From Pegea sp. RAD2-039 (taxonomy: Eukaryota; Chordata; Thaliacea; Salpida; Salpidae), in NCBI GenBank assembly GCA_034620365.1, contig JAQGEQ010000003.1, positions 310,001 through 374,000 on the forward strand: 64,000 nt of DNA, given 5' to 3'. The translations under genes were made by a program, and so were the position numbers. The notes beneath the pieces were generated by a model that worked only from the letters and a program-made list of their open reading frames with translations, had not been told where the DNA came from and made no database searches. Below are positions 33,001 through 63,103 of the stretch, piece by piece (the stretch's first letter is position 1; each line of letters begins with the position of its first letter).

Positions 33001-36000
33001 TCATAAAATTTTGTGTCTAGTCTAAGAAGACTCATAGTCGTGCGTGGTACCGTGTCCAGGCCTCTCGGTCACTTCTAGCTGGTCAACGAGTCGTCCCACA
33101 TCTAAACGAAGGTCTTAGAAAGGTGATTTTTCTTTTATAAGATTTTTGATACTTATTTTCTTATAATTGATGATATTTATGGTATAATGAGTTTGCTTTA
33201 TGATGAAAAATAATTTGAGGTTTTTAAGTCAATTCGCCCAAAATTGTAATTTTTATGAAAGTTTTGTTTTTAGTGAAAATTTTAGTTGAAAATTCTTTCT
33301 GATTTAAATTTTTAAATCATTTTGAATTCGAGAAATCTTTATCTAATCTCAACAAGCAAACCTTGTGTTTTTTTACATTTAAAAACTTTACATTTTTATC
33401 TTATTTTCTCTTAGTTTTGTGAAACTTTTAAGAAAAGTTTTTCTCTTTCCTGAAAGCTTTTCACTTTGAAAAAACCAAATTAATTTATCAACAAAAAAAT
33501 CAATTTTTAGCAACTTAAATAATTTGTTGTTTGTAAAACCCACATGAATTTGCAGTTAGTAAAAAAATAGTGTTGTGTTTAACGTCAATTTTGTAAAGTA
33601 TTTGTCTCAATTAATGAAATTAGGAATTCAAATTTGATGTTTTGATCGAATTTGTCATTCCAAAATTCTGAAGTTTAATTACAACTTCAAAACAAGATTC
33701 TTAAACCATAAATTTACGTCAAATTTTATCTGTTTCCTGTTCGAGATCAACTTTACCGTTTCATATTCATGTTGTAGTACTAAAGAGTAGTGAGTTTTTT
33801 GTCTTTACACACTCTTTAGATAGTAATGTTTGCAACCAATAAAAAAGTTTCAAAAAACAGCATTCTTAAACAACAAGTATTTGTACATAAATCAATCAAC
33901 TAAAAAATATTAAATTTTCACCAACTGGTTTTATTCCAAATGTTAAAAGGAAGAGTTTTTTATACTTTTAACTAGTTACATTTGCTTCTTATGTAGACTC
34001 TCCGTTCTTTGGATTCTAACCAGGTTAGATTTGTACCATGTCAATTTTTGTAACATTATAAAGCTTTGAACAAAATTCTTTTTTCAAATTAACTTTTTTT
34101 TTTTGGCTAAAGTTTGTTTTTTGCATGATTACATGTTTGCATGTGCTGAAAATATTTCAAAAAAACAACTTGGAAACCCGGAAACTCAATTCTTGTTAAA
34201 ACCATTTTTTTTTCTTTTAAACAATTTGAAAACTTACAAAAAAAATTTGAACTGATTTTTTTAAATAAATATTATTAATAATTAATCATTTTTTTTTTTA
34301 CAAACCTTTTTCATTTGAGTTAATCTGAAATTTTACAAATTTCTTCTTAAAAATTTCAACCATAAAAATCGTCTCGAAGGCGATTATGACGTCATCAACA
34401 TAATCGATTAAATAGTCGCAGATTCAACTATATTCCTTATTAACTCACATCAAACCAAAACCTTCCAGATTTAAACCTTCGCGAAGTTTCGATGACGTCA
34501 TCAACGTGACGAATTTGAAATTTGTTTATTGAAAAAATTCAAGAGATTTTTTTTGGAAACACTCAAACACGCAGCCGGCTTTTTTTGCATGATTCAGCAT
34601 GAGCTCATTTGCATATCGATTACTATGACAACAACGCGATGACGTCATCACTTGTACTTTTCAAGATACTCCATGCTTCGAGTTCGAAATCCGGTTTAAA
34701 AGAAGCTTTGAACGAAGTTGGGAAGTTAAAAACTGAAATTGAATTTGACGCGGTTTCATGTTCGGTGATGGAAAATTGTGGAAACGTCAAATTGAATGTA
34801 ATCAGGAGAGGCGATCTTCAACTTCCAGCTGCTGTCAGGTGATCACCCTGATTCTGATCTTCACCGGAAGTTGATTTTTACCGGAAGTTGATTTTTATCG
34901 GAAGTTAATTTTTACCGGAAGTTGATTTTTATCGGAAATTAATTTTTACCGGAAGTTGATTTCTACCGGAAGTTAATTTTTACCGGAAGTTGATTTCTAC
35001 CGGAAGTTAATTTTTACCGGAAGTTGATTTCTACCGGAAGTTAATATTTTTTTAGATACGAAACAATCGATGGAACCGCGAACGCGGGCGAGGATTACAC
35101 ATACGCGAAAGGAGTCCTTAATTTCGCCCCAAAGGTGCCCTAGAAACTTAAAAATCGAAAATCATTTTAAAAATTCGATTTTCAGGAATCGAAAAAAGCG
35201 ATCGTCATTGAGATTATTGATGATGATGTCTGGGAGCCGGATGAGACCTTTTTTGTCAAATTATCATCATCTGATGCAGATTTGGAAGAAGATTACGTAA
35301 AATTAGGAAAGAAAACGATTATGCAAATTACGATTATTAATGATGATGGTAAGTTTCCTGAAATATCAAAATTTGAAGCAAAAAAATTTTTTCAAATTAA
35401 CCAATCAGAAGACAGCAAGTCAAAAACTTCAATAAAATTTTCTTCAAATATTTATTCATGTGGAAACTATTTTGGCTTTTTCAGAACCTGGCACTATTGA
35501 GTTTACAAAACCAAGTTATTTGGTAAAAGAGAGCGTGGGTACCGCACTTTTACCACTTCATCGGTTTAGCGGAGCTGATGGAATAGTTGAGGTGGAATGG
35601 ATGTTAGTTTAATTTTCTTTTATTTTTGAAAATTGAGAAAATTAATTTCGAGTTTTTCTAAAAAATATAAAAACTAAAAAAAAGTTAAAAAAAAAATATT
35701 GAAAATATGAAATAGAATATCAATCACGTGACTAGCGATTAAATTATGCAAATTATCGTCAGAGCGAATGATTTAAGTGGTAAAGAAGGTGAACATTACA
35801 TTGGAAAAAGCGGCAAAGTTATTTTTGAACATGGAGAATGTGAAAAGAATATTGAAATTGAAATTGTAAATGATCATGCTACAATTAAAGAAGAAAACTT
35901 CCAGGTTTCTGATTGGTTGTTTCTGATTAGCTGTTTCTGATTGGTTGTTTCTGATTGGCTGTTTTTGATTGGTTATTTCTGATTGGTGGTTTCTGATTGG

Positions 36001-39000
36001 TAGTTTCTGATTGGCTGTTTCTGATTGGTTGTTTCTGATTGGTTGTTTCTGATTGGTTGTTTCTGATTGGTTGTTTCTGATTGGTTGTTTCTGATTGGCT
36101 GTTTCTGATTGGTTGTTTCTGATTGGTTGTTTCTGATTAGTTGTTTCTGATTGGTTGTTTCTGATTGGTTGTTTCTGATTGGTTGTTTCTGATTGGTTGT
36201 TTCTGATTGGTTGTTTCTGATTGTTTGTTTCTGATTGGCTGTTTCTGATTGGTTGTTTCTGATTGGTTGTTTCTGATTAGTTGTTTCTGATTGGTAGTTT
36301 CTGATTGGTGGTTTCTGATTGGCTGTTTCTGATTGGTTGTTTCTGATTGGTTGTTTCTGATTGGCTGTTTTTGATTGGTTATTTCTGATTGGTGGTTTCT
36401 GATTGGTAGTTTCTGATTGGCTGTTTCTGATTGGTTGTTTCTGATTGGTTGTTTCTGATTGGTTGTTTCTGATTGGTTGTTTCTGATTGGTTGTTTCTGA
36501 TTGGCTGTTTCTGATTGGTAGTTTCTGATTGGCTGTTTCTGATTGGTTGTTTCTGATTGGTTGTTTCTGATTGGTTGTTTCTGATTGGTTGTTTCTGATT
36601 GGTTGTTTCTGATTGGTTGTTTCTGATTGGTTGTTTCTGATTGGTTGTTTCTGATTGGTGGTTTCTGATTGGCTGTTTCTGATTGGTTATTTTTTGATTG
36701 GCTGTTTCTGATTGGCTGTTTCTGATTGGTGGTTTCTGATTGGCTGTTTCTGATTGGTTGTTTCTGATTGGTTGTTTCTGATTGGTTGTTTCTGATTGGT
36801 TGTTTCTGATTGGTTGTTTCTGATTAGTTGTTTCTGATTGGTTGTTTCTGATTGGTTGTTTCTGATTGGTTGTTTCTGATTAGTTGTTTCTGATTGGTGG
36901 TTTCTGATTGGTGGTTTCTGATTGGCTGTTTCTGATTAGTTGTTTCTGATTGGTAGTTTCTGATTGGTGGTTTCTGATTGGTTGTTTCTGATTGGTTGTT
37001 TCTGATTAGTTGTTTCTGATTGGTGGTTTCTGATTGGTGGTTTCTGATTGGTTGTTTCTGATTGGTTGTTTCTGATTGGTTGTTTCTGATTGGTTGTTTC
37101 TGATTGGCTGTTTCTGATTGGTTGTTTCTGAAATTTTTTTGAACTTTTTTATTTTCAGATTTCTTTACTAAAACTTAGTGAAGGAGCAAAATTCGGAAAG
37201 ACCCAAAAAACCATAGTAACAGTTGTCGGAGACGATGGTTAGTTTATTTATACAAATTTCTGACATGAGTTGTTACATCAAAAAAAGTTTTTAATCTCGT
37301 TAATAATTAATTAAATGTTGTTAACAAAAAAAATGATAAAATTCACCAAAAAAACTGATTTCACTTCAAAACTTTAACAAGATTTTCAAATTGATAAAAT
37401 TTCTACAGAATTTGATGGTCTTGTAAAACGAGTTATTGCAAAAACTCATTTAAAACTTCAAAAATTGAAGTTAGGAAGTCAAAGTTGGGCTGAACAGTTT
37501 AAATCTGCCATGGCAGTCAATGGTGGTGACGTAGAAAACGCGACAACGCTCGATTACGTCATGCACTTCTTCACTTTCGGCTTTAAGGTTTGTGATGTGG
37601 TTCTGTTTGTAATTTGATGATGATTTTTTGATGATTTTTAAGGTGATATTTGCAATTGTACCACCCCCTTCAATATGGGGCGGCTGGGCGTGCTTCTTTT
37701 GTGCTCTTGGATTTATTACCATCCTCACCGTTTTGATTAAAGACTTGGCAAGCATCTTCGGATGTTTAATTCATTTGAAAGTAATCTAAAAGTTTTTTGT
37801 GAAAGTTTTCATCAATTAATCTGATCTTCAAACTCTCTAACAACTTGATCTTCAAACTCTCTAACATCTTGATCTTCAAACTCTCTAACATCCTAATCTT
37901 CAAACTCTCTAACAACTTGATCTTCAAACTCTCTAACAACTTGATCTTCAAACTCTCTAACAACTTGATCTTCAAACTCTCTAACAACTTGATCTTCAAA
38001 CTCTCTAACAACTTGATCTTCAAACTCTCTAACATCTTGATCTTCAAACTCTCTAACATCTTGATCTTCAAACTCTTTAACAACTTGATCTTCAAACTCT
38101 CTAACAACTTGATCTTCAAACTCTCTAACATCCTGATCTTCAAACTCTTTAACATCTTGATCTTCAAACTCTTTAACATCTTGATCTTCAAGCTCTTTAA
38201 CAACTTGATCTTCAAACTCTCTAACAACTTGATCTTCAAACTCTCTAACATCTTGATCTTCAAACTCTCTAACATCTTGATCTTCAAACTCTCTAACAAC
38301 TTGATCTTCAAACTCTCTAACATCTTGATCTTCAAACTCTTTAACATCTTGATCTTCAAACTCTCTAACAACTTGATCTTCAAACTCTCTAACATCTTGA
38401 TCTTTAAACTCTCTAACATCTTGATCTTCAAACTCTAACAACATCTTGATCTTCAAACTCTCTAACATCTTGATCTTCAAACTCTCTAACATCTTGATCT
38501 TCAAACTCTCTAACAACCTGATCTTCAAACTCTCTAACATCTTGATCTTCAAACTCTCTAACATCTTGATCTTCAAACTCTCTAACATCTAGATCTTTAA
38601 ACTCTCTAACATCTTGATCTTCAAACTCTCTAACATCTTGATCTTCAAACTCTCTAACATCTTGATCTTCAAACTCTCTAACATCCTAATCTTCAAACTC
38701 TCTAACATCTTGATCTTCAAACTCTCTAACATCTTGATCTTCAAACTCTCTAACATCCTAATCTTCAAACTCTCTAACATCTTGATCTTCAAACTCTCTA
38801 ACATCTTGATCTTCAAACTCTCTAACATCCTAATCTTTAAACTCTCTAACATCTTGATCTTCAAACTCTCTAACATCTTGATCTTCAAACTCTCTAACAT
38901 CTTGATCTTCAAACTCTCTAACATCTTGATCTTCAAACTCTCTAACATCTTGATCTTCAAACTCTCTAACATCTTGATCTTCAAACTCTCTAACATCTTG

Positions 39001-39701
39001 ATCTTCAAACTCTCTAACATCTTGATCTTCAAACTCTCTAACATCCTAATCTTCAAACTCTCTAACATCTTGATCTTCAAACTCTCTAACATCTTGATCT
39101 TCAAACTCTCTAACATCTTGATCTTCAAACTCTCTAACATCCTGATCTTTAAACTCTCTAACATCTTGATCTTCAAACTCTCTAACAACATCTTGATCTT
39201 CAAAATATCTTTACAGTCGACAGTGAACGCGATAACTCTAGTTGCTCTAGGGACTTCACTCCCAGATCTGTTTGCCAGTAAAACTGCTGCCATTCAGGAA
39301 AGATACGCCGACAACTGCATTGGTAACGTTACTGGCAGCAATAGTGTCAACGTATTCCTAGGTTTAGGTCTTCCTTGGCTTATAGCTGCTATCTACTGGC
39401 AAATAAAAGACGTAAGTTTCTAAATTAATTTACAAATATCCTTCAAAGTTGATATTTACAGCAAAAGCCCTTCCATGTACCCGCAGATTCCTTGGGTTTC
39501 AGTGTAACTTTGTATTCAGTGTGTGCTATTTTGTGTTTAGCAACTTTAGTAGCTCGTAGACATCTAAGTTTTTTTGGTAAGACAGAACTGGGCGGTCCAA
39601 CTGTCCCCAAGTATCTGACCGCAGCTTTTTTTGTCACTTTATGGTTTATTTATATTATTGTATCTTCTTTACAAGCTTATGAAATTATTGAAGGTTTTTA
39701 A
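30072..39701 (+). CDS. SLC8A: Na+/Ca2+ exchanger (NCX/SLC8 family), complete, 16 exons
   Basis: Plasma-membrane antiporter exchanging Na+ for Ca2+ (818 aa). Exons: 30072-30284, 30413-30587, 31040-31221, 32394-32514, 32570-32727, 33021-33122, 34666-34838, 35056-35134, 35186-35348, 35485-35602, 35763-35904, 37159-37237, 37409-37587, 37643-37780, 39217-39411, 39462-39701. All phases join. Seen in order: N-terminal membrane segments; alpha-1 repeat with [11 protein letters not shown] (about 100-110) and [10 protein letters not shown]; a cytoplasmic loop with the YRVQASR segment; two Calx-beta Ca2+-binding domains (about 337-570) with acidic motifs such as DDDVWEPDE; and alpha-2 repeat with [15 protein letters not shown] (from about 682), then the last membrane segments. 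It is shorter than vertebrate NCX (about 920-970 aa) and shows no obvious cleavable signal peptide. ATG 30072 lies one base after a CAG acceptor-like site, so an upstream exon or a trans-spliced leader is likely. The start of exon 11 (weak pyrimidine tract) is the least certain junction. Confidence 0.92.
34855..35046 (+). repeat. 17-bp tandem repeat in NCX intron 7
   Basis: About eleven units of TTGATTTTTACCGGAAG and variants fill almost all of the intron between exons ending at 34838 and starting at 35056. The array reaches the short pyrimidine tract before the acceptor. Confidence 0.93.
35905..37131 (+). repeat. 14-bp minisatellite, about 85 units, in NCX intron 11
   Basis: The unit is GTTTCTGATTGGTT with single-base variants (GGTG, GGCT, TAGT). 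The array starts at the 5' splice site itself (CAG|GTTTCTGATTGG) and ends near 37131, shortly before the TTTATTTTCAG acceptor. It occupies about 98% of the intron. Confidence 0.97.
37805..39210 (+). repeat. 24-bp minisatellite, about 58 units, in NCX intron 14
   Basis: The unit is CATCTTGATCTTCAAACT plus CTCTAA, with ACAACTTGATC variants mainly in the first third of the array. The unit is a multiple of three and has few stops, so open frames of about 200-270 codons appear on both strands (for example 37766-38431 and 38614-39423). They encode only the 8-residue repeat and are not genes. The array runs to within about 10 bases of the exon 15 acceptor at 39216. Confidence 0.97.
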
Positions 39702-45658: not shown

Positions 45659-48600
45659 ATGTCATCTAAATCGCCAAGCCCAAAAAGATTGAAAGGTCAT
45701 AGTGACCAAAGGTAAATAAAGTTTTAAGGAAGTTTTGTGCTAAAAAATCACTTATTTGTCATAAAGATGTTTTTATATTTTAAAGTTTATTATTTATTAC
45801 AATAAATGTGAAAGAGGGTGCCTAAAAACAACACCTTTCGCTAAAATTTTTATAGAAGATTAGTTCTGAAACTCATAAAACCCTTATTTTATATTTTATC
45901 ACTTTTCAAAATAAAATCATTATTTAAAAGATATTCGATTAATGTAAAAAACAGTTTTTTAATATTTCATATAAGCTTATAACCCAAAATAAAATCTTTT
46001 TTTCTAAAAATTCTATAATCTGAAAGATGCTTTTCTAGTGATGTTAAAAATTCTTTTGTACAAAAAATTTTTTAATTTCTTTTTGTAGAGATTTTTCGTT
46101 TTAAAGTTGTTCAATTTAAATTTTCTAAAAACTTTTAAAGTTAAAACTTTCATGAATTTAATTCATATATTTGTTTATTTTATGTTTCTGATTTTATAAT
46201 AATTATAAATGTCTAACAAATGCCTTTACGACACAATACAGCTCTTGTAGTAAAATACAATTCTTTTTTGAGTTTAATTTATGCATTTTGGTTTTCCAAT
46301 TATTAATTTTATTCCTTCAAAATCAGAATATCATTTCTAATAACTTAAAACAAACTGCTTCTAAATCAGTTTATCTAAAAATTAATTTTTATTTTTTTAG
46401 AAATTATCAAAAGTCTATAACTTTAAGTCCAATAAGAACTCAAAGTGGTGCCAACCTAAGGACCGCTAAATGGACCACAATGAATATAAATCGTGGACAA
46501 GGTCACTACAAGACCAACAAATGGAACCCAAGGGGCGGATATAATAACTATTATGCCAGAAATAGGTTCAAGTTCAAATATTTCATCACTTTTAATTGTT
46601 TACATCAAATTAAAAAAAAATAAATCTCTGATTTTGAAAGAAGACTTACTTCTTGAGCAAATTGATTTTAATTTCAGTTTTAATTATCAATTTTAGGCGT
46701 CACTTGGAAAATTGGGAATATAATGTTTGATTTTGATGGTTTAGATTTTGGAAAGATTTTCAAATTTATATTTATGCAAAAAAAAAAAACTTTGTTATGA
46801 AAAAAAAATCACTACAGCTTAAGATATAAGCAGGTATCGGTTTTGTTAATAGGGATTAAACATTTGAAATAAAAAAAAGGACTTTAGACAAAAACAAAAA
46901 GAGTCAAAAAAAAATTTCTGAAAATTGATGGAAAAAAAATCGAAAAAAAGAAGAAGAAAAAAATTTATATTTTTAAAAATCTAAGATATGTTTTTAGATG
47001 GCAAGGAAATTATAGAGGACGCGGCTACAACCGAGGTTATTATAACAATCGGGGTAGTGGCCATCGCTATCAACAGCGCTATCGACGTTCTAGAAGTCGA
47101 TCAAGGTTTATTATTCAAAAAAAAGTCCAATGATTTAATCTTTAAATGTTTAGATCAAGAAGCCGATCTTATTCAAGATCAAAATCTCGTGAAAGATCTT
47201 ATACAAGATCTAGATCTTTATCTTCATCGAGATCACCTGTATCTTCTACTTCTAAACCTATTAAATCAACTTCAGCTCTTCAAGCTTTATCTTATTTCAG
47301 GTTTGCGATAATTTGGCTTTTTATAAACTTGCCTTTTAAAGCATCTGCCCCATAATTATCATCTTTTAATCTTCTAATATTTTTATAATCTTCATCTTGT
47401 ATGATCAACTAATAATCTTAAAAGGATTTCATTTAGTTTCATTTTTACAAAATTTTGAAGCAAATAAGTTTTAAGATTCAAAATTATTAAAAATGAATTT
47501 GAAAAAAAAAATTTTATTCATTTTTTCAGAGGTGACTCATCAGCTAGTGATGTAGAACAAGAAAAGAAATCTTCTCAATCTGATCGTAGAAGAGATATCC
47601 CTGTAGTAAGTCCTCTGATATTCATCTTTGTTTGGCCATATTTTAATATAGTCTTTTACTCATCTTCTTTTGCTCATATACTGATCCTCATCATTTGATC
47701 TTTAGAGTCAAATGGAGGAATCAGCAGTTCAAAGAGTGGAACGCCATAAAAAGCATCTTTCAGAGATGATAAAGAAGTCCACAAAATATACAAATGAAGC
47801 AAGTGATGATGAAGATAAAGAAGAAGAAGACATAGAAGATTATGGGATGAAGATTCAACCGAAAAAGAAGAAGCAATCAATCAACTTTAAGAAGATAGAA
47901 AGGAAGATTTCAGCTTCTAGTATATCTTCAGGTCATTTAACTGAGTAAGTTTCAACAATATTTTCAAATAATTGAAGATTTAAAATTCGTTGTTCAAAGT
48001 GACGAAGTGGAAAATACAAAAAAAGCCAATATGGGTCTTCCAAAGACTAACAAAGATGTAGAAATGTAAGATATGATCATTTTTCACTTTTTTTTACTTT
48101 TATAATCTTCTTCTGATCTTTATTACATCTGAAGTTTCATTTTCTTATTCAAATATTTATGACAGAATGGATGGAAGCGGAAAGTTGGAAGGTTTCAAAG
48201 TGATTGGACCTGATGGTGAGCCTGTCAACTTAATAAGTGTCGATGTCCCTGGTGCTGATGGAAAAATGATGAAAGTCCTACAGATTCCAACCAGTAAGTC
48301 TTAAATCATCCTCATCAACTGGTTGTTTTCACCAACTGGTTGTTTTCACTATCAACTGGTTGTTTCCACCATCAACTGGTTGTTTTCACCATTAACTGGT
48401 TGTTTTCACCACCAACTGGTTGTTTCCACCATCAACTGGTTGTTTTCACCACCAACTGGTTGTTTCCACCATCAACTGGTTGTTTTTACCATCAACTGGT
48501 TGCTTCTACCATCGACTGGTTGTTTTCACCAACTGGTTGTTTTCACCATCAACTGGTTGCTTCCACCATCAACTGGTTGTTTTCACCATTAACTGGTTGT

Positions 48601-51600
48601 TTCCACCATCAACTGGTTGTTTCCACCATCAACTGGTTGTTTTTACCATCAACTGGTTGTTTCCACTATTAACTGGTTGTTTTCACTATCAACTGGTTGT
48701 TTCCACCATCAACTGGTTGTTTTCACCATTAACTGGTTGTTTCCACCATCAACTGGTTGTTTTTACCATCAACTGGCTGTTTCCACCATCAACTGGCTGT
48801 TTCCACCATCAACTGGCTGTTTCCACTATCAACTGGTTGTTTTTACCACCAACTGGTTGTTTCCACTATCAACTGGTTGTTTTCACCATCAACTGGTTGT
48901 TTCCACTATTAACTGGTTGTTTTCACTATCAACTGGTTGTTTTCACCATTAACTGGTTGTTTCCACCATCAACTGGTTGTTTCCACCATCAACTGGTTGT
49001 TTCCACCATCAACTGGCTGTTTCCACCATCAACTGGCTGTTTCCACCATCAACTGGTCGTTTTCACCATCAACTGGTTGTTTTCACCATCAACTGGTTGT
49101 TTTCACCATCAACTGGTTGCTTCCACCACCAACTGGTTGTTTTCACCATCAACTGGTTGCTTCCACCACCAACTGGTTGTTTCCACTATCAACTGGTTGT
49201 TTTCACCATCAACTGGTTGTTTCCACCATCAACTGGTTTTAGATGGTTGCTGATGACTTTTAAGATGGTTTTTTGTTTTAGATTCGAAAGGGGAAATGAA
49301 ATCTGACCCAGAACATTTGGTTAAAATAGGTTCGTTTCTTCATCTGATTATTTTGTTCTGAAAGCTTTTAAGTGAAAATTTATTCAATGAATATCTTGAA
49401 TTATTTTTACAGTTGAAAAGTTTGAAAAAACAGCAAACAAATTTTTTCACAAAAAAATTAACATTTAAAAAAACAAATTTGAAACAGCGAAAAATGATTT
49501 TCTAAAAATTGAATGCTGAAAAAATGGACTTTGATTTTTTTGCACCTAAATTTTTGTGGATTCATTTTATAAATGATTTGATTTTAAATATTTGGTGGTG
49601 ACAAATTTGATTTGAGTTTTACATCAACATCCCAAATAATATTTTAAGCAGTTTCTGGAGAAGCGGAAAATGCTGAGAGAAAAGAACTCACAAGTTTTAG
49701 CGGTGGCTTTGTAAAAGAGTGAGTCTTAAATAGAAAATAAGGAATTGAAATCGTGATAAAGTGACTTGCAGATAAATGTCTAAGATTCATCATCATGAAA
49801 AAATAAAACTGTTTTCTAAAAATATAATATTTTTAGAAAACTGACATTTATAATAATTATCGATTTATTATAATTATCGATTTATTATAATTATCGAATA
49901 ATATTTATCATTAAATTTTTTAATCAAATTTCTTGTAAGATAAAAAAACTTTTAATTTTTTGAAATATTTTTTTCGAATTTTAAAACGTTGTTTTTTTAA
50001 ACAGATTAAAAAGTGAATCTTCAGAATATGAGTCGTCTTCTAGTGACCCACAAAATTTCAACAAATCTAAAAAGTTTGAATCTCATATCTAAATAAACCT
50101 CAAAATTAAATTTATCGATCACTACAGACGAAAAGGGAAAAGCCTGATGACGTCAGCAGCTGATGAAGAGATCGATGATTCTGTTAAAGAAGAAAAACGA
50201 AAGAAAAAGAAAAAAAACAAAAAAAATAAACGAAGCTCTTCACAAGAAGGCGTTGTGCTCATGAAAGATAAGAAAAAGAAGAAGAAAAAGAAGGTAAAGT
50301 CCCTAGCAACCACCTTAGTTCCCTTAGCAACCACCTTAGTTCCCTTAGCAACCACATTAGTGTTCTTAGCAGCCATCTTAGTATCCCTAGAAACCACATT
50401 AGTGTCCCTAGCAACCACATTAGTGTCCCTAGCAATCACCTTAGTGTCCCTAGCAACCACATTAGTTCCCCCAGCAACCATCTTAGTGTCCCTAGAAACC
50501 ACATTAGTGTCCCTAGCAACCATCTTAGTGTCACTACCAATAACTAGGATATCCATAGAAACCATTATAACACCCTTAGCAACTATTCTAATATTTCCGA
50601 TCTTTTAACAATCGATTATTAAGGCGAAGAAGGCGCTCGATGATGACGTCGCTGATTACGAAGGATTTAAAAAGCAGAGAAAATCAGCGAAGCGGAACGA
50701 CGCCGACGGTTTGAATCGGTCAGTTGATAAGTTGGTTGCTAAGCACGTGACCTCATCATTGCTGTATGCAGCGGAATTCCCTCCTCGTTGACATTAAGTC
50801 ACGTTAGAGGTTTGGTTGCTAGGCGACGGGAAGAAGGCGAAAGTGCGTTGTTTAGTCACGTAAACTTCGAAAAAACGCAAACAAAGAAAGCTGAAAAAAG
50901 TGATGAGGATAAATTCGTGCTTTTGTTTACTGAAGATCATGATGAAGATCAGGAGAATGAAGATCAAGATGAAGATCACTTAGATGATCTTACTGATGAA
51001 AAATTATTGAAGAAGATCAAAGTGTCGTTGCCAGGTAACCACACAATCATCTGATGATCAAGTAGTGATCGTGACGTCATAACAGCTCCGCGAAAAGTTA
51101 ATCATCGAACGGAGATGACGATTTCAACGAGAATCAAAAATGTCCGTGAACATCAAACTGAGAAAGCTGTCATCGAACAAAAAGTCAGTTGATGACGTCA
51201 TAGCAAGCGTGTCGATGACGTCATGTTTCTAGGTTTCTGTGAATCTTTCAAATTTGTCGAAAGTGAAACGAAAGTTGCCGAAATTGAAAATAGAGAAATC
51301 TTCAATTGAAGAAGCTGTAGTTGAATCCGATGAAGTCGCTGAAGATGAGATGAAGATACAAGATCGTGAAAGAAGGTCAACATCCAGTGATGTTAGTGAA
51401 TCATCAAAGACTCGAAGAAGGTCACGATCTCTTCCAAGAGCTTATAAAGCTTATGATAGAAGAGATGGAAGGTCTTATAAGGTGGAAGATATATTATTGT
51501 TGAAGATCTCGTTGTAAAATGTCAGTTGGTTTTTCAGGATAGCAGCTCAACTGAACGAAGAGAGAATGAAAGCGGATATTTGAATAGGAGATCAAGATCT

Positions 51601-52963
51601 CGGTTAGATCCCAACATCTTCATCTTTATCTGATCTTATTTTTATTCAGATCAAATTCGAGAGAACAAAATCATTCAAATTATCGAAGTTATTATCAAAC
51701 GAAAAATTTTTACAATCAAAGATACCAGGGTAGGAACAGAGGTTATAATAATAGAGGTAAGTCTTCATCTGATTTTTATCCAACTTTGATATTTGTGTCT
51801 TGAGGAGGTTTTCGTGGAAGATTCAACAATTATAGAGGTGGAGGTAACTACTTTAACAACCGTGGTGGTGGCGGTGGTTACAACAATCGTGGTTACTACA
51901 ACAACAACAGAGGGGGTTATTATAATAATTATAATAATCGTAACCATAGTGATTGGAGAAGAGATAGAAGAGAAAGATCAGAATATGATCATCATCACAG
52001 GTTAGATCTTCTTCATCTTCTAATCTTCATCTTCTGATCTTCATCTTCTAATCTTCATCTTATAATCTTCATCTTCTAATCTTCATCTTCTAATCTTCAT
52101 CTTCTAATCTTCTAATCTTCATCTTCTAATCTTCATCTTCTAATCTTCATCTTCTAATCTTCATCTTCTAATCTTCATCTTCTAATCTTCATCTTCTAAT
52201 CTTCATCTTCTAATCTTCATCTTCTAATCTTCATCTTCTAATCTTCATCTTCTAATCTTCATCTTCTGATCTTCATCTTCTAATCTTCATCTTCTGATCT
52301 TCATCTTCTAATCTTCATCTTCTAATCTTCATCTTCTAATCTTCATCTTCTAATCCTCATCTTCTAATCTTCATCTTCTAATCTTCATCTTCTAATCTTC
52401 ATCTTCTAATCTTCATCTTCTAATCTTCATCTTCTGATCTTCATCTTCTGATCTTCATCTTCTAATCTTCCTCAGCAAAGATCGAAGTCGAAGTGTTTCG
52501 CGTGAAGTCAGCGTGAGTAGCGAAGAGCCGAAAGTTGAAAGACATCGAGAAGTCGAACAGCAGGTGACGTCATCAAAACGCTCGCGTCATCAGCAGCTAA
52601 ATTTCGATTTTAGATTTCAGAAAGAAATTCTTCGGAGCCTGAAGTTGCCGCTTCAAAAAGTAAAAAAGTTGAAAATAAGGAATTGAAATCGTGATAAAAT
52701 GACTTGCAGATAAATGTCTAAGATTCATCATCATGAAAAAATAAAACTGTTTTCTAAAAATCTAATATTTTTAGAAAACTGACATTTATAATAATTATCG
52801 ATTTATAATAATTATTGAATAATATTTATCATTAAACTTTTGAAAATAATTTCTTTTATTATGTTTTTTTGACATTTATAATCTTTTAGACGAACAGAAC
52901 AGCGAGAAACTGAAACGTCTCGACCAGCCATGGACCCATGATCTTTATGAAGAAAATGATTAG
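45659..52963 (+). CDS. RS- and RG-rich nuclear protein, probably THRAP3/BCLAF1-like, 22 exons
   Basis: Exons: 45659-45711, 46401-46565, 46998-47105, 47154-47300, 47530-47605, 47706-47944, 48000-48065, 48166-48293, 49282-49329, 49649-49718, 50005-50073, 50128-50293, 50624-50718, 50823-51034, 51086-51183, 51233-51481, 51538-51602, 51650-51756, 51805-52000, 52476-52563, 52614-52659, 52890-52963. All phases join, giving 854 aa. Seen: MSSKSPSPKR start; RG/Y/N-rich segment (RGRGYNRGYYNNRG); RS run (SRSRSRSRSRSYSRS); acidic and Lys-rich middle (KKKKKNKKNKR); a second Gly/Asn/Tyr/Arg-rich segment in exons 18-19; and terminal QPWTHDLYEEND. N-terminal RG plus RS, a later RG region and a terminal W-T/A-H-D motif match the THRAP3/BCLAF1 layout, a family in mRNA processing and nuclear bodies. 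Low complexity makes family assignment tentative. Exon 14 could instead start at 50772 (17 more residues). Confidence 0.8.
45790..45852 (-). mobile_element. LINE 3' tail copy in intron 1 of the RS/RG-rich gene
   Basis: On the minus strand it reads TTTAGCGAAAGGTGTTG, then CACCCTCTTTCACATTTATTG, matching the shared tail with substitutions. It is an old, severely truncated insertion. Confidence 0.6.
48310..49242 (+). repeat. 20-bp minisatellite, about 46 units, in intron 8 of the RS/RG-rich gene
   Basis: The unit is ACCATCAACTGGTTGTTTCC, alternating with TTTTC and TTCC variants. It fills nearly all of the intron between exons ending at 48293 and starting at 49282. The unit lacks stops in several frames, which creates overlapping open frames of up to 277 codons. 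These are not genes. Confidence 0.97.
49733..49917 (+). repeat. Intronic element copy A with a perfect 13-bp hairpin (intron 10)
   Basis: About 185 bp nearly identical to 52671-52837. It starts 14 bases after the exon 10 donor. It contains GTTTTCTAAAAAT, a 5-nt loop and ATTTTTAGAAAAC (49811-49841). This copy has an extra unit of the CGATTTATTATAATTAT-type repeat near its end. It could be a small non-autonomous transposon, a duplicated intron segment or an intron-encoded RNA. Confidence 0.85.
50300..50585 (+). repeat. 21-bp minisatellite in intron 12 of the RS/RG-rich gene
   Basis: About thirteen units of the type CCCTAGCAACCACCTTAGTG, moderately diverged, follow the donor at 50294. The core TAGCAACCA is shared with the coding minisatellite of RAD9. 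Confidence 0.9.
52007..52472 (+). repeat. 14-bp minisatellite, about 32 units, in intron 19 of the RS/RG-rich gene
   Basis: The unit is TCTTCATCTTCTAA. The array fills the intron from just after the donor (52001) to the acceptor CTTCCTCAG (52475), so the repeat itself serves as the polypyrimidine tract. Confidence 0.95.
52671..52837 (+). repeat. Intronic element copy B with the same hairpin (intron 21)
   Basis: Second copy of the element at 49733-49917, in the same orientation and 11 bases after the exon 21 donor. The 13-bp stem is unchanged (52749-52779) and the loop differs (CTAAT against ATAAT). Reading through the donor would give a short tail ending at a TGA within the element, a possible alternative C-terminus. 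Confidence 0.85.
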
Positions 52964-53254: not shown

Positions 53255-53290
53255 AGCTGGTCGAGGAGTTTTTACAACTTAAGGTGCTAA
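53255..53290 (-). repeat. Fragment of the 113-bp repeat in the 53-kb intergenic gap
   Basis: GTCGAGGAGTTTTTACAACT followed by AAGGTGCTAA is the reverse complement of the AAAAACTCCTCGAC part of the satellite unit. A sister fragment (CGAGGAGTTTTTACAAATCA) lies in RAD9 intron 1 at 55222-55258. Confidence 0.65.
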
Positions 53291-53542: not shown

Positions 53543-55601
53543 TCAAAAATCTTCATCTTCTGAAAGATCAGATGATTCTACAAAAACTTTAACTTGTGAA
53601 TTCGGTGGTTGGGTTGTGACGTCATAGAAAATATCTCGAAGCCGATGATACTTTTGTGAATTCCATAAAGAGATGTTTGCTTCGTCTTCATTCTTTGCAA
53701 CTGAATGATCTTCCGTAGCAACTACATGATCTTCCGTAGCAACCAAATGATCTTCCGTAGCAACCACACAATCTTCCGTAGCAACCAAATGATCTTCCGT
53801 AGCAACCAGATGATCTTCCGTAGCAACCAGATGATCTTCCATAGCAACCAAAGGATCTTCCGTAGCAACCAGATGATCTTCCGTAGCAACTACTTCTTCT
53901 AAATCTTTTTCCATAGCAACAATCTCTTCCTGATATTTAAGAGACTTCCTCATCTCTTCATGTAAAGACCTCCGGATTCCTTGATCTTCTAAAGACCTTC
54001 TTTTTTCTTGATCTTCTTCAGATCTCACTTTCTTTCTTTTAATTCTTTTCTCAATCGGACCAATCTTCGTTTTACAACTTTTTGTGGTCGAATCGTGGAC
54101 ATTGGGACAGTTGGTTGCTATGACAAAGTTGACCGTGAACAGCTGGTCCTGTTGGCAACTAGCTATTAGAGGTTTTCCGCCAGATTCAAAATGGAGATTT
54201 AAAGAGCAATCAGTAAATTCACAAAAAGATAAAATTGATTTAAATTCTTTCAAACAAAACATCATTTCAGTGTCGACACCGATCTGAAAACAAAAAATTC
54301 GAAAAAAACCCTTGAAATACTAAAAGTCTCGGAAAATTTGGTTACTATTTCGTAACTTGCACAGATTTTATAGCAATTTTTTTCAAGTTTTAAAATAAAA
54401 AGGTCTTAAGGGTTTCCTGATAAAAACTAGGAAAGATTTATATCAAAAGTTATTTGGAAATTCAACTTTTCTACAATTTGATGGAAAAAATCTAAACCCC
54501 AAATTAATTTAAACAACTTTTTATATCTTTATTTATGATTTAAAAGCTAGAATCTTTTTTAATTTGAATTTAAAATTAGAAATAATTTGAGTAAAATTTG
54601 AAAATTTCTATAAAAAAAATGTGAAACCTGGAAATTGAGGAATTCTTCAGGATCTAAAACTATTTGAGTTTTCATTGAATGGTTCAAATCATTAAAATTA
54701 TTTGATGAATTTTTGATGATTACTTGACAGGGTGAAACAGAGAGAAAAATCTCGTCTAAGGAGGACGTGAAGTTAGTTGTAACTGAAGACATAAACTTGT
54801 GTTCACATTCCATAGTGTTGGGACACAGATCTTTTGCAAACTTTGCCTAAAAAAGATTTGTTGAAAGACTTGTTCAATTCCTAAAAAATTTGAGAAGAAA
54901 AACTATAAATAAATTTATTAAATTGAGTAGAAAGGAAGTGACATATTCACTGTGTGTTGCTTATCAATTGTTTATTAAAAGCTTACTTCTAAGGTATCAC
55001 ACTCCATAAACTCTAAGCAATGTGTTTTTGTGATGCCATGCCTACATTTCAGTTCCAAAACAATCTGGTCTTTAAACTCATCATCTAATTTGATTGTGCA
55101 ATATTCTACAGACTTTTCGATTGTACTTAAAGATTTGAAAACTGAAATGTAAAGATTAGATGATGAAGATTAGAAAGATGAAATTTTTGTGAGATAAAAG
55201 TTAATATTGAGTTTGTGTTGTTTGCCGAGGAGTTTTTACAAATCAAGGTGCTAAACTTTGCCAAATCTAATACTGTTATCGAAGCAGGGTTTCATAAATT
55301 TGAATTTCGTTTTTTTGATAAACATCAAAAACCTCAAACCTTGCAATAGTTTCTTAACAGCAATTCTACAAATCAAATTTGTCTCATCTTCATCTGTTAG
55401 TTTATCAATTGAACAATCATAAAAAGAAAAATTTGATTTGAAAAACAAGAAACATAGATATGAAGATCTCGATGTGTTGACGGTTTTCAGCGCGATTCCG
55501 GCTTCTAGAACTTCGAGATAAACTTCAAAGCCAACTTTCGCGATGCAATGAACCGCTTTTGCAAAGTTTTTTAAATTAACTGAAGGTAAAACGCATCTCA
55601 T
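53543..55601 (-). CDS. RAD9A: RAD9, subunit of the 9-1-1 checkpoint clamp, complete, 4 exons
   Basis: RAD9 forms with HUS1 and RAD1 the PCNA-like 9-1-1 ring loaded at damaged DNA to activate ATR. Exons on the minus strand: 55601-55340, 55141-54987, 54846-54628, 54283-53543; phases agree, giving 458 aa. Recognisable segments are KAVHCIAKVGFEVYLE near the N-terminus, TVNTSRSSYLCFLF, LQVFKSLSTIEKSVEYC across the first junction, and MFCLKEFKSILSFCE in the second PCNA-like half. The C-terminal tail (after about residue 260) is Lys/Glu-rich. It contains about ten 7-residue repeats of the type VATEDHL (roughly residues 335-410), then ends in SSDLSEDEDF, an acidic Ser-containing end suited to kinase docking as in known RAD9 tails. 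The ATG lies 5 bases after a TTTCAG acceptor-like site and 97 bp after the LIN9 stop codon, consistent with a downstream operon gene. Confidence 0.93.
53700..53895 (-). repeat. Coding 21-bp minisatellite in the RAD9 tail
   Basis: About ten units, read on the plus strand as TGATCTTCCGTAGCAACCAA, encode VATEDHL and close variants (VAMED, DCV, DPL) on the minus strand. The frame is kept throughout. Confidence 0.93.
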
Positions 55602-55698
55602 ACTTTCTGAAATCCCGAAATGATGACGTCACAAAAAAAGCAAAAAACTTTAAACTACAATAAAACAAAGTCCAACTAATAAATAATATAAAAACACT
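55602..55698 (-). promoter_or_regulatory. 97-bp LIN9-RAD9 intercistronic region with candidate trans-splice acceptor
   Basis: On the minus strand, LIN9 stops and only 97 bases later RAD9 starts. The spacer has a T-rich stretch, a TGACGTCA (55624-55631), and CGGGATTTCAG directly before AAAGTATG. This is the pattern of a spliced-leader acceptor between operon genes. There is little room for a separate promoter and 3' UTR. Confidence 0.55.
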
Positions 55699-57225
55699 TT
55701 AAACGCTAGAAGACGATGACGTCATCGTGTTGAAGATTTTTTCTGTTTCCATTCCACTTTTGATGTGAGCTATATGGATTTCAACGTTTCTTTGAAATGA
55801 GACTTGATTTTTAGGATCTAATTTTTTCTTGATGTCTTTAAGTGTGTCTGTTAAAGATTTAAACTCTATAGAGGAGCTTTGATTGCTTTGAGATAAAGTT
55901 TTGACTTGAAACATCAACGAAGTTAAATTTGTAACTAAATTTGTGAGGTTGGGGTTGGAGATTGGGACCCTAGAAACTTCTGAATTTTTAGAAGTGATTA
56001 AACTTTTAGCCAGATTATCACATTGACGTCTTAGATGATTTGTTTCGTCAATTGGGAGAATCTGTTCTGGATATAACTCTAAACAAAACCTCTGAACCCC
56101 AACTAAAAGCTCATTTAAATCTTTATTCAATCTTTCTAAGTCAACGACAATTGTGGCGTATTTCCGCTGAAATTCGAGACTTAAATCCTCGCCAAATGAG
56201 TTTGCCTTTTCCGCTTCACAATTCATCGATGATAAACGATAAACTTTTTCGCGTTTCATCGTCAAAACGCGCGATAAACGAGCAACTTTCTTCAACAACT
56301 GAACAGGGAAACCCTGTAGGGTGCCACCTTGCTCATCACTTAATTGAAGTTTGTTTCGTAACGGGGAAAACCCCAAAACTGGGTCATGTTCAGGCTGGTT
56401 GTGTTCGTTCGGTACACAAACAGGAAATATAAACCTTTGAGGTACATGGGCAGCAAGGTTGGTTTGTTGATCGATCAAAGAAATTATGTTGATTGTGTCT
56501 TGGGGCTCAAAACTACAGACTTCAATATCTGGAACCATATGAGTTCCAAGGTTAGCACGGTCAAAGGTTACGCGGTAGGCTGAATTAGCCGCATCTATAG
56601 CGTCTATTTGACCCGTAAACAGACCATCGTTAGGTGTTCGTAACCAAGCAGTGACGTTGGTGCCTACCACTAAAGGTAAGGGGATTTCCCGAGGTAGAGA
56701 CCATGTATCTTGGTCTTCCTTCGGAATCTTATTTTTTTGAAGAAGACGAATTTTGTGTCTTTTATTGGCGAGTGCGAGACGTTCCTCGTTGAAAAAAGCT
56801 TCTGAGCATCTACGGGGCTTCCCCATAAGTCTTCTGATTTTTGCCCAGTGAGTTCGGGTTAGTTTGTAGGTCTTGAGTTCCGGAAAAGAGTCTTTGAGAC
56901 ACATACAAAAGTCATTATCAGAGTTAAACAGTGAGTTGTCAACGTTGGAGTAAAACCACTCATACACACACATCTTGTGAGCTTTTGGGAGCTTTAAAAG
57001 GTTCTTTAAACGTGATCCCACCTTCTTAGCGTTCTGTTTTTCAATGTTAGAGTTAGGTTGGACTTTCGTGGTAAAGTTGATATTTGAGGCGTCAATTTGA
57101 AGCTGTGGTTTTGATTTTATTTTCATTGTAATTTCATTTTCTGGTTTTAAACTTCGATTTCGTTTTCGTTTTGATGATGTTATCATTTCATTGTTAAATG
57201 TATCAATTGAGTTATGAATTGACAT
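55699..57225 (-). CDS. LIN9: LIN9 (DREAM/MuvB complex subunit), complete and intronless
   Basis: LIN9/Mip130 is a core MuvB subunit; in DREAM and with B-MYB it represses or activates cell-cycle genes in the nucleus. One uninterrupted frame of 508 aa covers the family from end to end (human LIN9 is about 540 aa). The DIRP domain (about residues 68-175) includes LRNLLKLPKAHK-type sequence (here LKNLLKLPKAHKMCVYEWF), the RTHWAKIRRLMGKPRRCS segment and EIPLPLVVGTNVTA. It is followed by the GLFTGQIDAIDAANSAYRVT Tudor-like part and a C-terminal helical region with SLEFQRKYATIVVDLERLNK and EIHIAHIKSGM. Other complete genes here have 3 to 21 introns; this one has none. ATG 57225 lies 17 bases after a TTTTCAG acceptor-like site. 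RAD9 follows 97 bp downstream on the same strand. Confidence 0.96.
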   Translation of the reverse strand: MSIHNSIDTFNNEMITSSKRKRNRSLKPENEITMKIKSKPQLQIDASNINFTTKVQPNSNIEKQNAKKVGSRLKNLLKLPKAHKMCVYEWFYSNVDNSLFNSDNDFCMCLKDSFPELKTYKLTRTHWAKIRRLMGKPRRCSEAFFNEERLALANKRHKIRLLQKNKIPKEDQDTWSLPREIPLPLVVGTNVTAWLRTPNDGLFTGQIDAIDAANSAYRVTFDRANLGTHMVPDIEVCSFEPQDTINIISLIDQQTNLAAHVPQRFIFPVCVPNEHNQPEHDPVLGFSPLRNKLQLSDEQGGTLQGFPVQLLKKVARLSRVLTMKREKVYRLSSMNCEAEKANSFGEDLSLEFQRKYATIVVDLERLNKDLNELLVGVQRFCLELYPEQILPIDETNHLRRQCDNLAKSLITSKNSEVSRVPISNPNLTNLVTNLTSLMFQVKTLSQSNQSSSIEFKSLTDTLKDIKKKLDPKNQVSFQRNVEIHIAHIKSGMETEKIFNTMTSSSSSV

Positions 57226-57389
57226 TTTTTCTTATTATAATCTGAAAATTACAAACATATAATAGTTTCTTATACTTCAAATAATAAAATTGTTTTAAAA
57301 AAATAAAACAAAAAATGCTTAGTGTTTAGAAGTAAAGAAAATATAAAATTAATGATTTTGATGGCAAGTTATTACTACAATATCCTTTG

Positions 57390-57455
57390 CACCTTTAACC
57401 ACTAAATTTTTATTGACTTAATGTTGTTATTTGAGGCGTTTTTATAAATAAAGCT
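57390..57455 (-). repeat. Internally deleted copy of the 113-bp repeat
   Basis: On the minus strand it carries TTTATAAAAACGCCTCAAAT, AACAACATTAAGTCAATAA and TAGTGGTTAAAGGTGC. These match, in order, the central and 3' parts of the satellite unit, with a deletion between them. Confidence 0.55.
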
Positions 57456-58599
57456 GTTAAACAGTAGACAAAATATAATTTAAAATATTTAAATAAATCA
57501 GATAATTAAAAATAATATAAGAAATTTGTTTTAGTAGTAAACATTTTATCTCATTTAAAAAATATGATAGCAATTATTAATTTTATTAATATAATTAATA
57601 AAAATATAACTTAAAACTAATGACAGAAAGAAACCATAAAAACACTAAGTTATAAAATATTTAAAATAAAAATTAATAAGTATAATTTTATAAAATAATA
57701 TAACAAAAATATAAAAATTATAAATTAATGATAATATATATTAGTTAACTATCTTATAAACATTTATATAGTTTATTTTATTTAATTAAATAATCAAAAC
57801 TTAGTAAAGTATATAATATATCAAACAAACATATCAAAAAAGGGCTGGAGAAAAAACTTTTTATTAATTAAAGAAGTTTTAAAATTAATAATTAATTTTA
57901 AAAGAAATTTAAAAAAGTTTTTTTATACTTTAAAAATTTTAGTAACTTTTACAAAAATTAAATTTTTGAAATTTCGTAAATTTGATTTTAAATTAAAAGA
58001 AAAATATTAAACTTGAAAATTTCAAAACAAAATAAATTCTAAAATTTTTTCAACTTATAATTTTAGAATAAAAGTATTATTATTATTATAAAATATTAAT
58101 AATAACAACTTTAGAAAGATTTTATTTTAATATAACCGAAATTTAGATTAATAATGATTAAAAAAAAAGTAAATAAGTTAGATAAAATATTTAGATAAAA
58201 AAATTATAAGATTAATTATAAGAACAGATTAGAAAATAGCTTTTAAAATCTTTTATTACAAAATAAAAAACAATATTGCAATTAACTAAAATAGTGAATT
58301 AAATAGTACACTTTTTTTAACATCTAAAAATAGAACCTACAAACATAAATTGAAACAAATCTAACTAAAATTGATAAAAACCTAATTTACATATCTGTAT
58401 TTGGAGAAAGCGCCTTAAGACGATACTTACCAGCCACTTGCGGCAGTAAAGCAAGAAGTAGGACAAAAGTAACTTTTTATGAAAATTAAAATATATTAAC
58501 CAATAATCTTGTATTCAATATTCAAATATTTGGTTTTTGCTGCTTGAGATTTTTTTGGTTGAAAAACTGCTAGAATAGAAATTAGATAGAAGCTATACA

Positions 58600-60760: not shown

Positions 60761-63103
60761 GAGTTTGGTAAGAAGTTACTGATCCTCAGTTTTCAAAATA
60801 ACTTTACTGGAAGTTATTATTTCTACATGATGAAAAGAAAACGAAAAAGACCAGTCATAAGACTTTTTGAAGAAGCTTTAAGATATCAAAAGATCCAAAT
60901 CAAATAAATATCAAAGGATGTAACGCAAAGCCTTGTAAAAGCAGACATTGTGGCAACAAACCACAATCGACCCTGATGTTGCAGTAAATAGAAACATGAC
61001 AATGACGTGAAACTAATGAGGTGCCAAGTTGGATAAAAAAGTCAGGAAAAGTACAGACTGGAAGGATTTGGCCTAATTGTGGACTAAAAGGGTACCTGGG
61101 CAAAAACAGAGTTGAAAGAAACGGATCAGCTGAGTAGTAACTGCTACTTTGAAAGTCTTAGCTTCAAAGGCGTAATTTCGCCGCAATTAAACCTAAAGTG
61201 AACTCGAGGAAGACCAACCAGTGGTCAACATCGGGAAGGGAAAAGATCATGAGGTGATTAGTAGAGTAGTTATGAGAAAGCTCCACTTAAGACGCGCCTT
61301 CTTCTAACTACTGGGACAAAAAGTCGGGAAATAACTAAACTTACTTCTCGACGAATATAGGGACGCTGAGCTTACATGATGAAGATTACAAAGAAAATGA
61401 GTCCCCACATTCCTCATCATCTAATTAGTGACGCGCATAAATAACGAGATTCCCACTGTCTCTATCTACTATCTAGTAAGACCACAGCGAAGCGAACGGG
61501 CTTGGCAGAATTATCCGGGAATTAGTGGTCTTTAGGACCTCTATTCCTGACTTAAGACACTACTTTAGAAATCTCACGTGGCGCAAAAGCTCGATTTTGA
61601 TTTTCAGTACCAATACAGACCGTGAAAGCGTGGCTTATCGATCCTTTTGACCTTGAGGGTTTCAAGCAAGAGATGTCAGAAAAGTTACCACATGGATAAC
61701 TGGCTTGTGGCAGCCAAGCGTTCATACCGACGTTGCTTTTTGATTCATCGATGTCGGCTCTTCATATCGTTGTGAAACAGAATTCACTAAGTGTTGGATT
61801 GTTTACCCACTAATAAGGAACGTGAGTTGGGTGAGGCAGGTTAGTTTTACTCTACTAATTGAGGATTGTTGCGATAGTAACTCAACTTAAAAATCCGCAA
61901 ATTCTGATGTTTTGATTATAGCTTTCACAGATAGTTAATGGTCCGTGAGCTGGTGTACCATCCAAAGAATCATAACTGGTGGCTTGTAAGTCAGAATACT
62001 CTTAGAAAAAATGATAAATGTATCCCTTATTCCCGATGAAAACTTTTCAAAAAGCGTTTCAACGTCGAGCTAGGCAGCATAGGTCTCGTGTTATCCTCTA
62101 GTCAAAAGGCTGGGCGCTAAATCATTTGTAAACGACTTAGTTAAAGATCAGGGTGTTTTGATCAATAGAGCTACGATTTCTTGAGATTCATTCTTACATC
62201 TACGATCTATTCCTGATAAAAGATTTCGATTCGACTTAAAATCAGGTCTAAGTGACATTCACCTGATGATAGGTGTCGCTTTATTTTGCAAACAGATTTA
62301 AATTAGATCAGCTAAATTGTTGATGAAACTATTTATCGGTTACTCCAATAAGAGATGTACTTTCTAGAGGACAAGAGTTAAAGAGACTTGTTAAGTAAAT
62401 GTTGGATCGAAACATTCGATGAGTTCGTTCGCTCTATGGTCGATATTAGTCATCAAATCGGTACGATTTGTTCTTGGTCGTTGAAAATGTCCAAGATTTT
62501 CCCAATTTGGACCTGACGGTCTACTCAAAATATTTGATTAAATGACTGGTTGATAAAGATCTTAGACTTTATAAAACTTGTATTTGGTCTTTTTATTTTA
62601 TTTTTGGTTTTTTAATGGTTTGTAGTACAATTTTGCCTAATATTATTTTTAATATTATTTTTTTACCATTACCATATAGTTACGTTTGTTTAGCTTTCAT
62701 CAGCTGACTTCAGATGTTTACAAACCTCCTAATGTGATAGATCAACAATTTCTTTACTTAAAAGCTTTTATTGTTATGATTTTTATGTTATTTCACTAAT
62801 TTTTTTATCAGATTATTTCTCGAGTTTTTTAAAATATCCTTACAAAAGCATATAAGTAATTATTTTAATATAATATCTACTATCTAATTACCAACTTATA
62901 ATAACTTTTATTATCTTTTATTTCTTATAAATTTTTGGATTTTAATGAACTTTTATTTATTATATTTTATTACAAAGTTTTCATAAAATATTTCAATAAA
63001 ATCATAAAGATTTGATTATTTAAAAGTTATAAATAACTTTAGTAAAAAAATTTATAATCTTTTGAAGTTCATCAGCTACTTTTGACATTTTATAATTTGA
63101 ATA

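What the first reader, a model, noticed from the sequence alone, without database searches (positions are those of the whole stretch)
55602..55698. LIN9 and RAD9 look like a two-gene operon resolved by trans-splicing
Seen: both genes are on the minus strand, LIN9 stop to RAD9 start is 97 bp, and GGGATTTCAG sits 5 bases before the RAD9 ATG. Known: spacers of about 100 bp with an acceptor before the downstream ATG are typical of operons in animals with spliced-leader trans-splicing. Inferred: a cell-cycle regulator and a checkpoint clamp subunit are co-transcribed.
Basis: partly seen in the sequence, partly recalled or inferred. Interest (0 to 1): 0.72.

Follow-up and report, generated by a model that had tools for sequence, protein, structure and literature searches.

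The report
Likely LIN9–RAD9 two-gene animal operon
Two cell-cycle genes sit head to tail 97 bases apart with a splice acceptor just before the second, an arrangement that recurs elsewhere on the same contig and looks like an animal operon, but no leader RNA and no transcript data were found to prove it.

Summary
LIN9 (one exon, stop 55699-55701) and RAD9 (ATG 55599-55601, four exons) lie on the minus strand 97 bp apart; an acceptor, GGGATTTCAG, ends 5 nt before the RAD9 ATG. RAD9 Met1 aligns with human RAD9A Met1.

Alone the site is weak: 12% of control ATGs have as good an acceptor within 40 nt. But in 264 kb of the same contig TIMM29>VPS53 (93 bp), PFDN5>WDR70 (83 bp) and POLDIP2>FAAP24 (177 bp) share the layout; 4 of 4 downstream ATGs carry a median-or-better acceptor (p 3e-4). 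In my gene models 12 of 32 same-strand gaps are at most 181 bp against 0 of 18 opposite-strand gaps under 522 bp, though several of the 12 look like split models. The TIMM29>VPS53 acceptor has no usable donor in its spacer.

Verdict: operon organisation likely, trans-splicing inferred; partly supported.

In passing: a hyper-abundant palindrome TGACGTCA (27,792 copies against 969 for the reversed word) and unnamed small Sm-type RNA families.

The parts
55699..57225 (-). LIN9 coding sequence, one exon, 508 aa, stop included (upstream gene)
55602..55698 (-). 97-bp intercistronic spacer, GC 0.26
55607..55616 (-). Candidate 3' splice acceptor GGGATTTCAG; score 1.45 against a median of 1.36 for 305 predicted intron acceptors
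55624..55631 (.). TGACGTCA palindrome in the spacer; one of 27,792 in the genome, so not specific promoter evidence
53543..55601 (-). RAD9 coding sequence, predicted exons 55601-55340, 55141-54987, 54846-54724, 54283-53543, 426 aa (downstream gene)
57242..57250 (-). Candidate acceptor AATTTTCAG 16 nt before the LIN9 ATG (score 2.07): LIN9 may itself receive a leader or have a 5' UTR intron

Best explanation
LIN9 and RAD9 form a two-gene operon. One promoter upstream of LIN9 drives a primary transcript through both genes. LIN9 is cleaved and polyadenylated in the 97-bp spacer, and the free 5' side of RAD9 is capped by trans-splicing of a short leader RNA to the acceptor ending at 55607, 5 nt before the RAD9 ATG. 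Shown: gene order, strand, spacing, start codon, acceptor, and recurrence of the layout in three more gene pairs on the contig. Inferred: co-transcription, the leader RNA, the trans-splice itself.
For: Exact geometry and N-terminal homology of RAD9. Same layout at TIMM29>VPS53 (93 bp), PFDN5>WDR70 (83 bp), POLDIP2>FAAP24 (177 bp). Downstream ATGs with an acceptor at or above the intron median within 40 nt: 4 of 4, against 13.4% of 4277 controls, p 3e-4; the 16 starts I judged reliable: 9 of 16, p 6e-5; antisense control 1 of 16; shuffles mean 2.1, maximum 6. Same-strand gaps of at most 181 bp in 12 of 32 pairs against 0 of 18 opposite-strand pairs (Fisher p 0.0019). TIMM29>VPS53 spacer: the only GT before the acceptor is GTTTCA, scoring below practically all of 251 predicted donors. 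A gene finder with ordinary priors fused POLDIP2+FAAP24+TIMM29 and MBOAT+PFDN5+WDR70 into single genes. The spacing matches the 99-bp median that PMC7986045 gives for C. elegans (passages read).
Against: No spliced-leader RNA gene recognised: a recalled rotifer leader is absent, no Rfam leader family in the stretches scanned, two promoter-plus-Sm pattern scans not above control (8 against 14; 3 against 5). RAD9's acceptor alone is ordinary (0.12). Weak donors exist in the spacer (GTTGGA, 23rd percentile; GTAGTT, 22nd), leaving room for a tiny 5' UTR exon; PFDN5>WDR70 and POLDIP2>FAAP24 spacers have better ones (GTGAAT 39th, GTAAGC 72nd). Of the 12 short same-strand gaps only three join two genes supported by homology (93, 83, 97 bp); five under 60 bp and probably some of the other four (83, 106, 123, 181) are split models. 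Without the five: 7 of 27 against 0 of 18, p 0.02; with the three alone: 3 of 23 against 0 of 18, p 0.17. In the default gene-finder run LIN9 and RAD9 did not appear in the filtered list at all. Organism unknown; no RNA data.
Confidence: 0.6

Rival explanations
1. Two independent, tightly packed genes: RAD9 has its own promoter in the spacer or in the end of LIN9, for instance using the TGACGTCA element, and a genomic 5' UTR.
For: TGACGTCA (CRE-like; label recalled) 23-30 nt before the ATG and again in the LIN9 3' end. The acceptor alone is not significant.
Against: TGACGTCA is everywhere (27,792 copies; 34 of 74 local copies fall in predicted coding sequence), so it does not mark this promoter. 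Mere compactness should also bring opposite-strand genes close, which it does not (0 of 18 under 522 bp). Acceptors before downstream ATGs in 4 of 4 pairs need another reason.
Confidence: 0.18
2. Ordinary cis-splicing: RAD9 has a short 5' UTR intron whose donor lies in the spacer or in the end of LIN9, and the acceptor at 55607 closes it.
For: A quarter of the predicted introns are 52 nt or shorter (my model's minimum is 44), so a 22-nt exon and a 70-nt intron would fit; acceptors also precede other starts (5 of 12 non-pair starts), as 5' UTR introns would give.
Against: In-spacer donors score in the lowest quarter; the matching VPS53 acceptor has no usable donor in its spacer. It still needs a promoter within under 100 bp or inside LIN9.
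Confidence: 0.15
3. Dicistronic mRNA: both genes on one transcript, RAD9 translated by re-initiation, without trans-splicing.
For: Short spacer; no leader RNA found.
Against: The acceptors before downstream starts would be unexplained; such translation is rare in animals (general knowledge).
Confidence: 0.07

Closest known systems
Nematode (C. elegans) SL2-type operons
   Same: Same-strand genes about 100 bp apart with an acceptor just before the downstream ATG; C. elegans median intercistronic distance 99 bp (PMC7986045, passages read)
   Different: No SL1/SL2 RNA recognised in the stretches scanned with Rfam; human-like LIN9 and long conserved genes without introns argue against a nematode (my judgement)
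Tunicate operons (Ciona, Oikopleura)
   Same: Co-directional gene pairs resolved by a leader
   Different: Ciona spacers have a median of 1 bp and Oikopleura 31-57 bp depending on settings; here 83-177 bp
Chaetognath RPS14-PCNA operon
   Same: Two-gene operon outside nematodes and tunicates, its downstream gene another sliding clamp (PMC2481426, passages read)
   Different: Only 3 bp between poly(A) site and acceptor; proven by ESTs with leaders, which are lacking here
Glass sponge leader trans-splicing (Aphrocallistes vastus)
   Same: Small genome, short introns, an approximately 37-bp leader motif from long reads (PMC10282587, sections 5 and 19 and passages read)
   Different: 12,409 of 19,578 A. 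vastus genes are single-exon and Oopsacas minuta has 1.59 introns per gene (PMC10280926, passage), against 6 of 51 single-exon models and 4.9 introns per gene here. PMC7986045 says operons had not been reported for hexactinellids. That our organism is a glass sponge is a guess that these counts weaken

Membership tests
Animal operon with SL trans-splicing | Adjacent genes on one strand with a short spacer | tested here: met
   97 bp; recurs at 83, 93 and 177 bp
Animal operon with SL trans-splicing | 3' splice acceptor just upstream of the downstream start codon | tested here: met
   Acceptor ends 5 nt before ATG, score 1.45, about the median of predicted intron acceptors; 4 of 4 pairs
Animal operon with SL trans-splicing | Acceptor without a local donor (outron) | tested here: inconclusive
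   Met for TIMM29>VPS53; only weak donors in LIN9>RAD9; a fair one in PFDN5>WDR70 (GTGAAT, 39th percentile) and a good one in POLDIP2>FAAP24 (GTAAGC, 72nd percentile)
Animal operon with SL trans-splicing | Spliced-leader RNA genes in the genome | tested here: inconclusive
   Not found by a recalled rotifer leader, Rfam on fetched stretches, or two promoter-plus-Sm patterns; these could miss a leader RNA of another design
Animal operon with SL trans-splicing | Polycistronic pre-mRNA and leader-bearing downstream mRNA | not testable with these tools
   No RNA reads held
Animal operon with SL trans-splicing | Conserved gene adjacency in relatives | not testable with these tools
   The genome tool reports no relatives for G000; the other open collections are prokaryotic, viral or plasmid

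The most novel reading that the evidence does not exclude
This is a compact-genome animal from a lineage without described operons (perhaps a sponge), in which operons are a general mode of gene organisation, so that nematode-style operons with about 90-bp spacers exist outside the groups where they have been described.
Probability: 0.25. Interest if true: 0.7.

Novelty: new member of a known kind. Interest (0 to 1): 0.45.

Why it matters
If the organism is outside the known operon-bearing groups, a few long cDNA reads would show operons in a new animal lineage and bear directly on whether leader trans-splicing and operons arose once or many times. It would also warn annotators: an ordinary gene finder fuses such pairs into false hybrid genes. 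Pairing a DREAM-complex subunit with a checkpoint clamp subunit (functions from general knowledge) suggests co-regulation, but the other pairs, such as a mitochondrial import subunit with a vesicle tether, show no shared function, so no functional logic should be read into one pair.

Tried and rejected
Leader RNA through the 5S array: four 5S genes in tandem; I saw no convincing leader-donor-Sm layout in their spacer (by eye). Leader RNA through the snRNA promoter: U2 and U6 copies share the box ACAAACACTAARCTTT (one of four U6 copies lacks it); scanning for it (147 places against 80 for the reversed word; not all were listed) led to small Sm-type RNA families. I considered them as leader RNAs and rejected that: their variable 5' halves show no conserved leader-plus-GT. 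Two pattern scans for box plus Sm site gave no excess. The recalled bdelloid leader is absent.

Organism: no COX1, no canonical 18S start, the SSU family search did not complete, and only LSU fragments were found. LIN9 as one of two copies (retrogene) was rejected: a single match. TGACGTCA as a RAD9-specific promoter was rejected: genome-wide motif. The 113-nt repeat, with copies in RAD9 intron 1 and on both sides of the pair, was considered as a leader gene and rejected: a tandem and dispersed repeat. Published TGACGTCA abundance: the listing (8 of 44 papers shown) held nothing matching; not exhaustive. Print on sponge operons: searches; on lin-9/hpr-9 operons. VPS53 had no PDB match; its name rests on Pfam.

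Selection to tell: the 16 'reliable' starts were chosen by me, partly on names recalled from sequence, after I had seen scores for 40 starts (16 of those 40 reach the threshold, two of them a duplicated gene with the same upstream sequence, some possibly internal exons). Names later checked: WDR70, ribosomal L7/L30, isocitrate dehydrogenase, ribulose-phosphate epimerase, carnitine acyltransferase; the SDHA and PLK4 names stay recalled. The gene set and both splice matrices come from my own gene finder trained on this contig, not from transcripts, and the controls use the same models. The short-gap run used raised start and stop odds because the default run fused neighbours.

Full report
What is there. 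The finding's coordinates are exact. On the minus strand LIN9 is a single 508-codon exon ending in TAA at 55701-55699; the next 97 bases are AT-rich (GC 0.26); GGGATTTCAG ends at 55607; AAAGT follows; RAD9 begins with ATG at 55601-55599. LIN9 is certain (human LIN9 E 1.5e-146; DIRP and LIN9_C) and gave one match in the 105.7-Mb assembly. RAD9 is certain too: three Pfam pieces, and my four-exon model aligns to human RAD9A from Met1. The window is C15:310001-374000 of an unnamed 387-contig genome.

Is the single site more than chance? No. With an acceptor matrix learned from predicted introns on the contig, RAD9's acceptor scores 1.45, about the median of 305 predicted intron acceptors (1.36), but 12.3% of 4277 non-coding ATGs have one as good within 40 nt. 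LIN9's own ATG has a better one, AATTTTCAG, 16 nt upstream (control fraction 0.055).

Is the arrangement repeated? Yes. I rebuilt 264 kb of the contig and called genes with a hidden Markov gene finder. Three further same-strand pairs have the same layout, with both members supported by searches: TIMM29>VPS53, 93 bp, TTTTTTTCAG 23 nt before the ATG (TIMM29; VPS53 Pfam, no PDB match); PFDN5>WDR70, 83 bp, TTGTTTCAG 22 nt before the ATG (WDR70 E 4e-86, aligned from residue 7); POLDIP2>FAAP24, 177 bp, CATTATACAG 7 nt before the ATG (the name POLDIP2 is recalled from the YccV-like and ApaG domains found). With default priors the gene finder fused POLDIP2+FAAP24+TIMM29 and MBOAT+PFDN5+WDR70 into single genes, and LIN9 and RAD9 were absent from its filtered list; raised start and stop odds separated them.

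Statistics. Acceptor at or above the intron median within 40 nt of the start: 4 of 4 downstream genes (p 3e-4), 5 of 12 other starts (p 0.015), 9 of 16 together (p 6e-5); control 13.4%; antisense 1 of 16; shuffles mean 2.1, maximum 6. The 16 starts were my choice and not blind; the wider list gives 16 of 40. Among neighbours with model score 40 or more (51 models), 12 of 32 same-strand gaps are at most 181 bp, against 0 of 18 opposite-strand gaps below 522 bp (Fisher p 0.0019). Five of the 12, under 60 bp, look like split models (p 0.02 without them); only three of the 12 (83, 93 and 97 bp) join two genes supported by homology, and with these alone the contrast is not significant (3 of 23 against 0 of 18, p 0.17). 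So the packing looks head-to-tail, which bare compactness does not predict, but the sample is small.

Trans- or cis-splicing? In TIMM29>VPS53 the one GT before the acceptor, GTTTCA, lies below practically all 251 predicted donors, so that acceptor is an orphan unless its donor is inside TIMM29. LIN9>RAD9 has weak ones only (GTTGGA, GTAGTT, 23rd and 22nd percentile). PFDN5>WDR70 has a fair one (GTGAAT, 39th) and POLDIP2>FAAP24 a good one (GTAAGC, 72nd), so cis-splicing is open there. I looked for leader RNA genes and recognised none: a recalled rotifer leader, the 5S spacer by eye, Rfam on fetched stretches, and patterns built from the U2/U6 promoter box plus an Sm site. These negatives are weak, because a leader RNA with another promoter or Sm variant, or one missing from the assembly, would escape.

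Which animal? Unknown. Compact AT-rich genome, median predicted intron 66 nt, several long conserved genes without introns (LIN9, VPS53, an isocitrate dehydrogenase). I first guessed a glass sponge, because Aphrocallistes vastus has a small genome and an approximately 37-bp leader (PMC10282587, sections 5 and 19 and passages) and because PMC7986045 says operons had not been reported there (passages). Intron counts speak against it: 4.9 introns per model and 6 of 51 models single-exon, where A. vastus has 12,409 single-exon genes of 19,578 and Oopsacas minuta 1.59 introns per gene (PMC10280926, passage). COX1 and 18S could not be found.

How it most likely works. One promoter upstream of LIN9, a joint transcript, 3' processing of LIN9 in the spacer and leader addition at 55607. 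Shown: the layout and its recurrence. Inferred: everything at RNA level. I put 0.60 on this, 0.18 on separate promoters, 0.15 on a cis 5' UTR intron and 0.07 on a dicistronic mRNA.

Other things. TGACGTCA, which sits in the spacer, occurs 74 times in the 264 kb where 1.25 are expected, 34 of them in predicted coding sequence, and 27,792 times in the genome against 969 for the reversed palindrome; I know of no explanation. The U2/U6 promoter box also leads to clusters of RNAs of about 55-75 nt (lengths inferred from the U2 start distance) with a variable 5' part, an Sm-like site and a conserved 3' hairpin. Of 20 stretches scanned, four matched Rfam (three U6, one RNase MRP); the 20 fetched were not scanned. 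Not every copy is intact: L047, L062, L068, L078 and one copy in L039 lack the Sm-like site, and L055, L056 and L058 show no such gene. They recall nematode SmY RNAs (recalled), which are linked to trans-splicing, and deserve a look of their own.

Noticed in passing
whole genome G000; window e.g. 55624-55631, 55717-55724, 53617-53624: The palindrome TGACGTCA occurs 27,792 times in 105.7 Mb against 969 for the reversed palindrome ACTGCAGT; 74 in 264 kb where 1.25 are expected: 34 in predicted coding sequence, 21 in introns, 19 between genes. Unexplained.
   Followed up: partly
C188 (L047-L054, L059-L069), C102 (L045, L046, L071, L072), C72 (L057, L074-L077), C22 (L039, L040, L078): Clusters of putative small RNAs behind the U2/U6 promoter box: variable 5' part, Sm-like site (AATTTGG, AATTTTTGG, AATTTTTAG, AATTTTG) and conserved 3' hairpin; the copies scanned (up to L058) have no Rfam match at E 0.1; some copies lack the Sm-like site. 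Possibly SmY-like or unrecognised leader RNAs.
   Followed up: partly
window 10873-12155; lone copies 53262-53290, 55226-55254, 57432-57460, 26102-26130: A 113-nt tandem repeat (11.4 copies) has lone partial copies downstream of RAD9, in RAD9 intron 1 and upstream of LIN9.
   Followed up: partly
window 61506-62208; C1:1479755-1480432; C245:425803-425897: 3' LSU rRNA fragments without other rRNA genes in the window or in 10 kb around the C1 copy; the window copy is strongly decayed (73% identity to the C1 copy). The C245 match (95 bp) was not examined.
   Followed up: no
window 53697-53890: The RAD9 C-terminal tail is built of about nine 21-bp repeats encoding VATEDHL-like heptads, an acidic coding minisatellite in a checkpoint protein.
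   Followed up: no
window 35905-37131, 37822-39204, 48313-49238, 52010-52470: Long minisatellites with 14-, 24-, 20- and 14-bp units, some open in several frames.
   Followed up: no
C32:1261123-1282814; C39:922538-940379: U2 genes in clusters in both orientations, ten copies with the same score, with U6 genes near three of the five examined.
   Followed up: no
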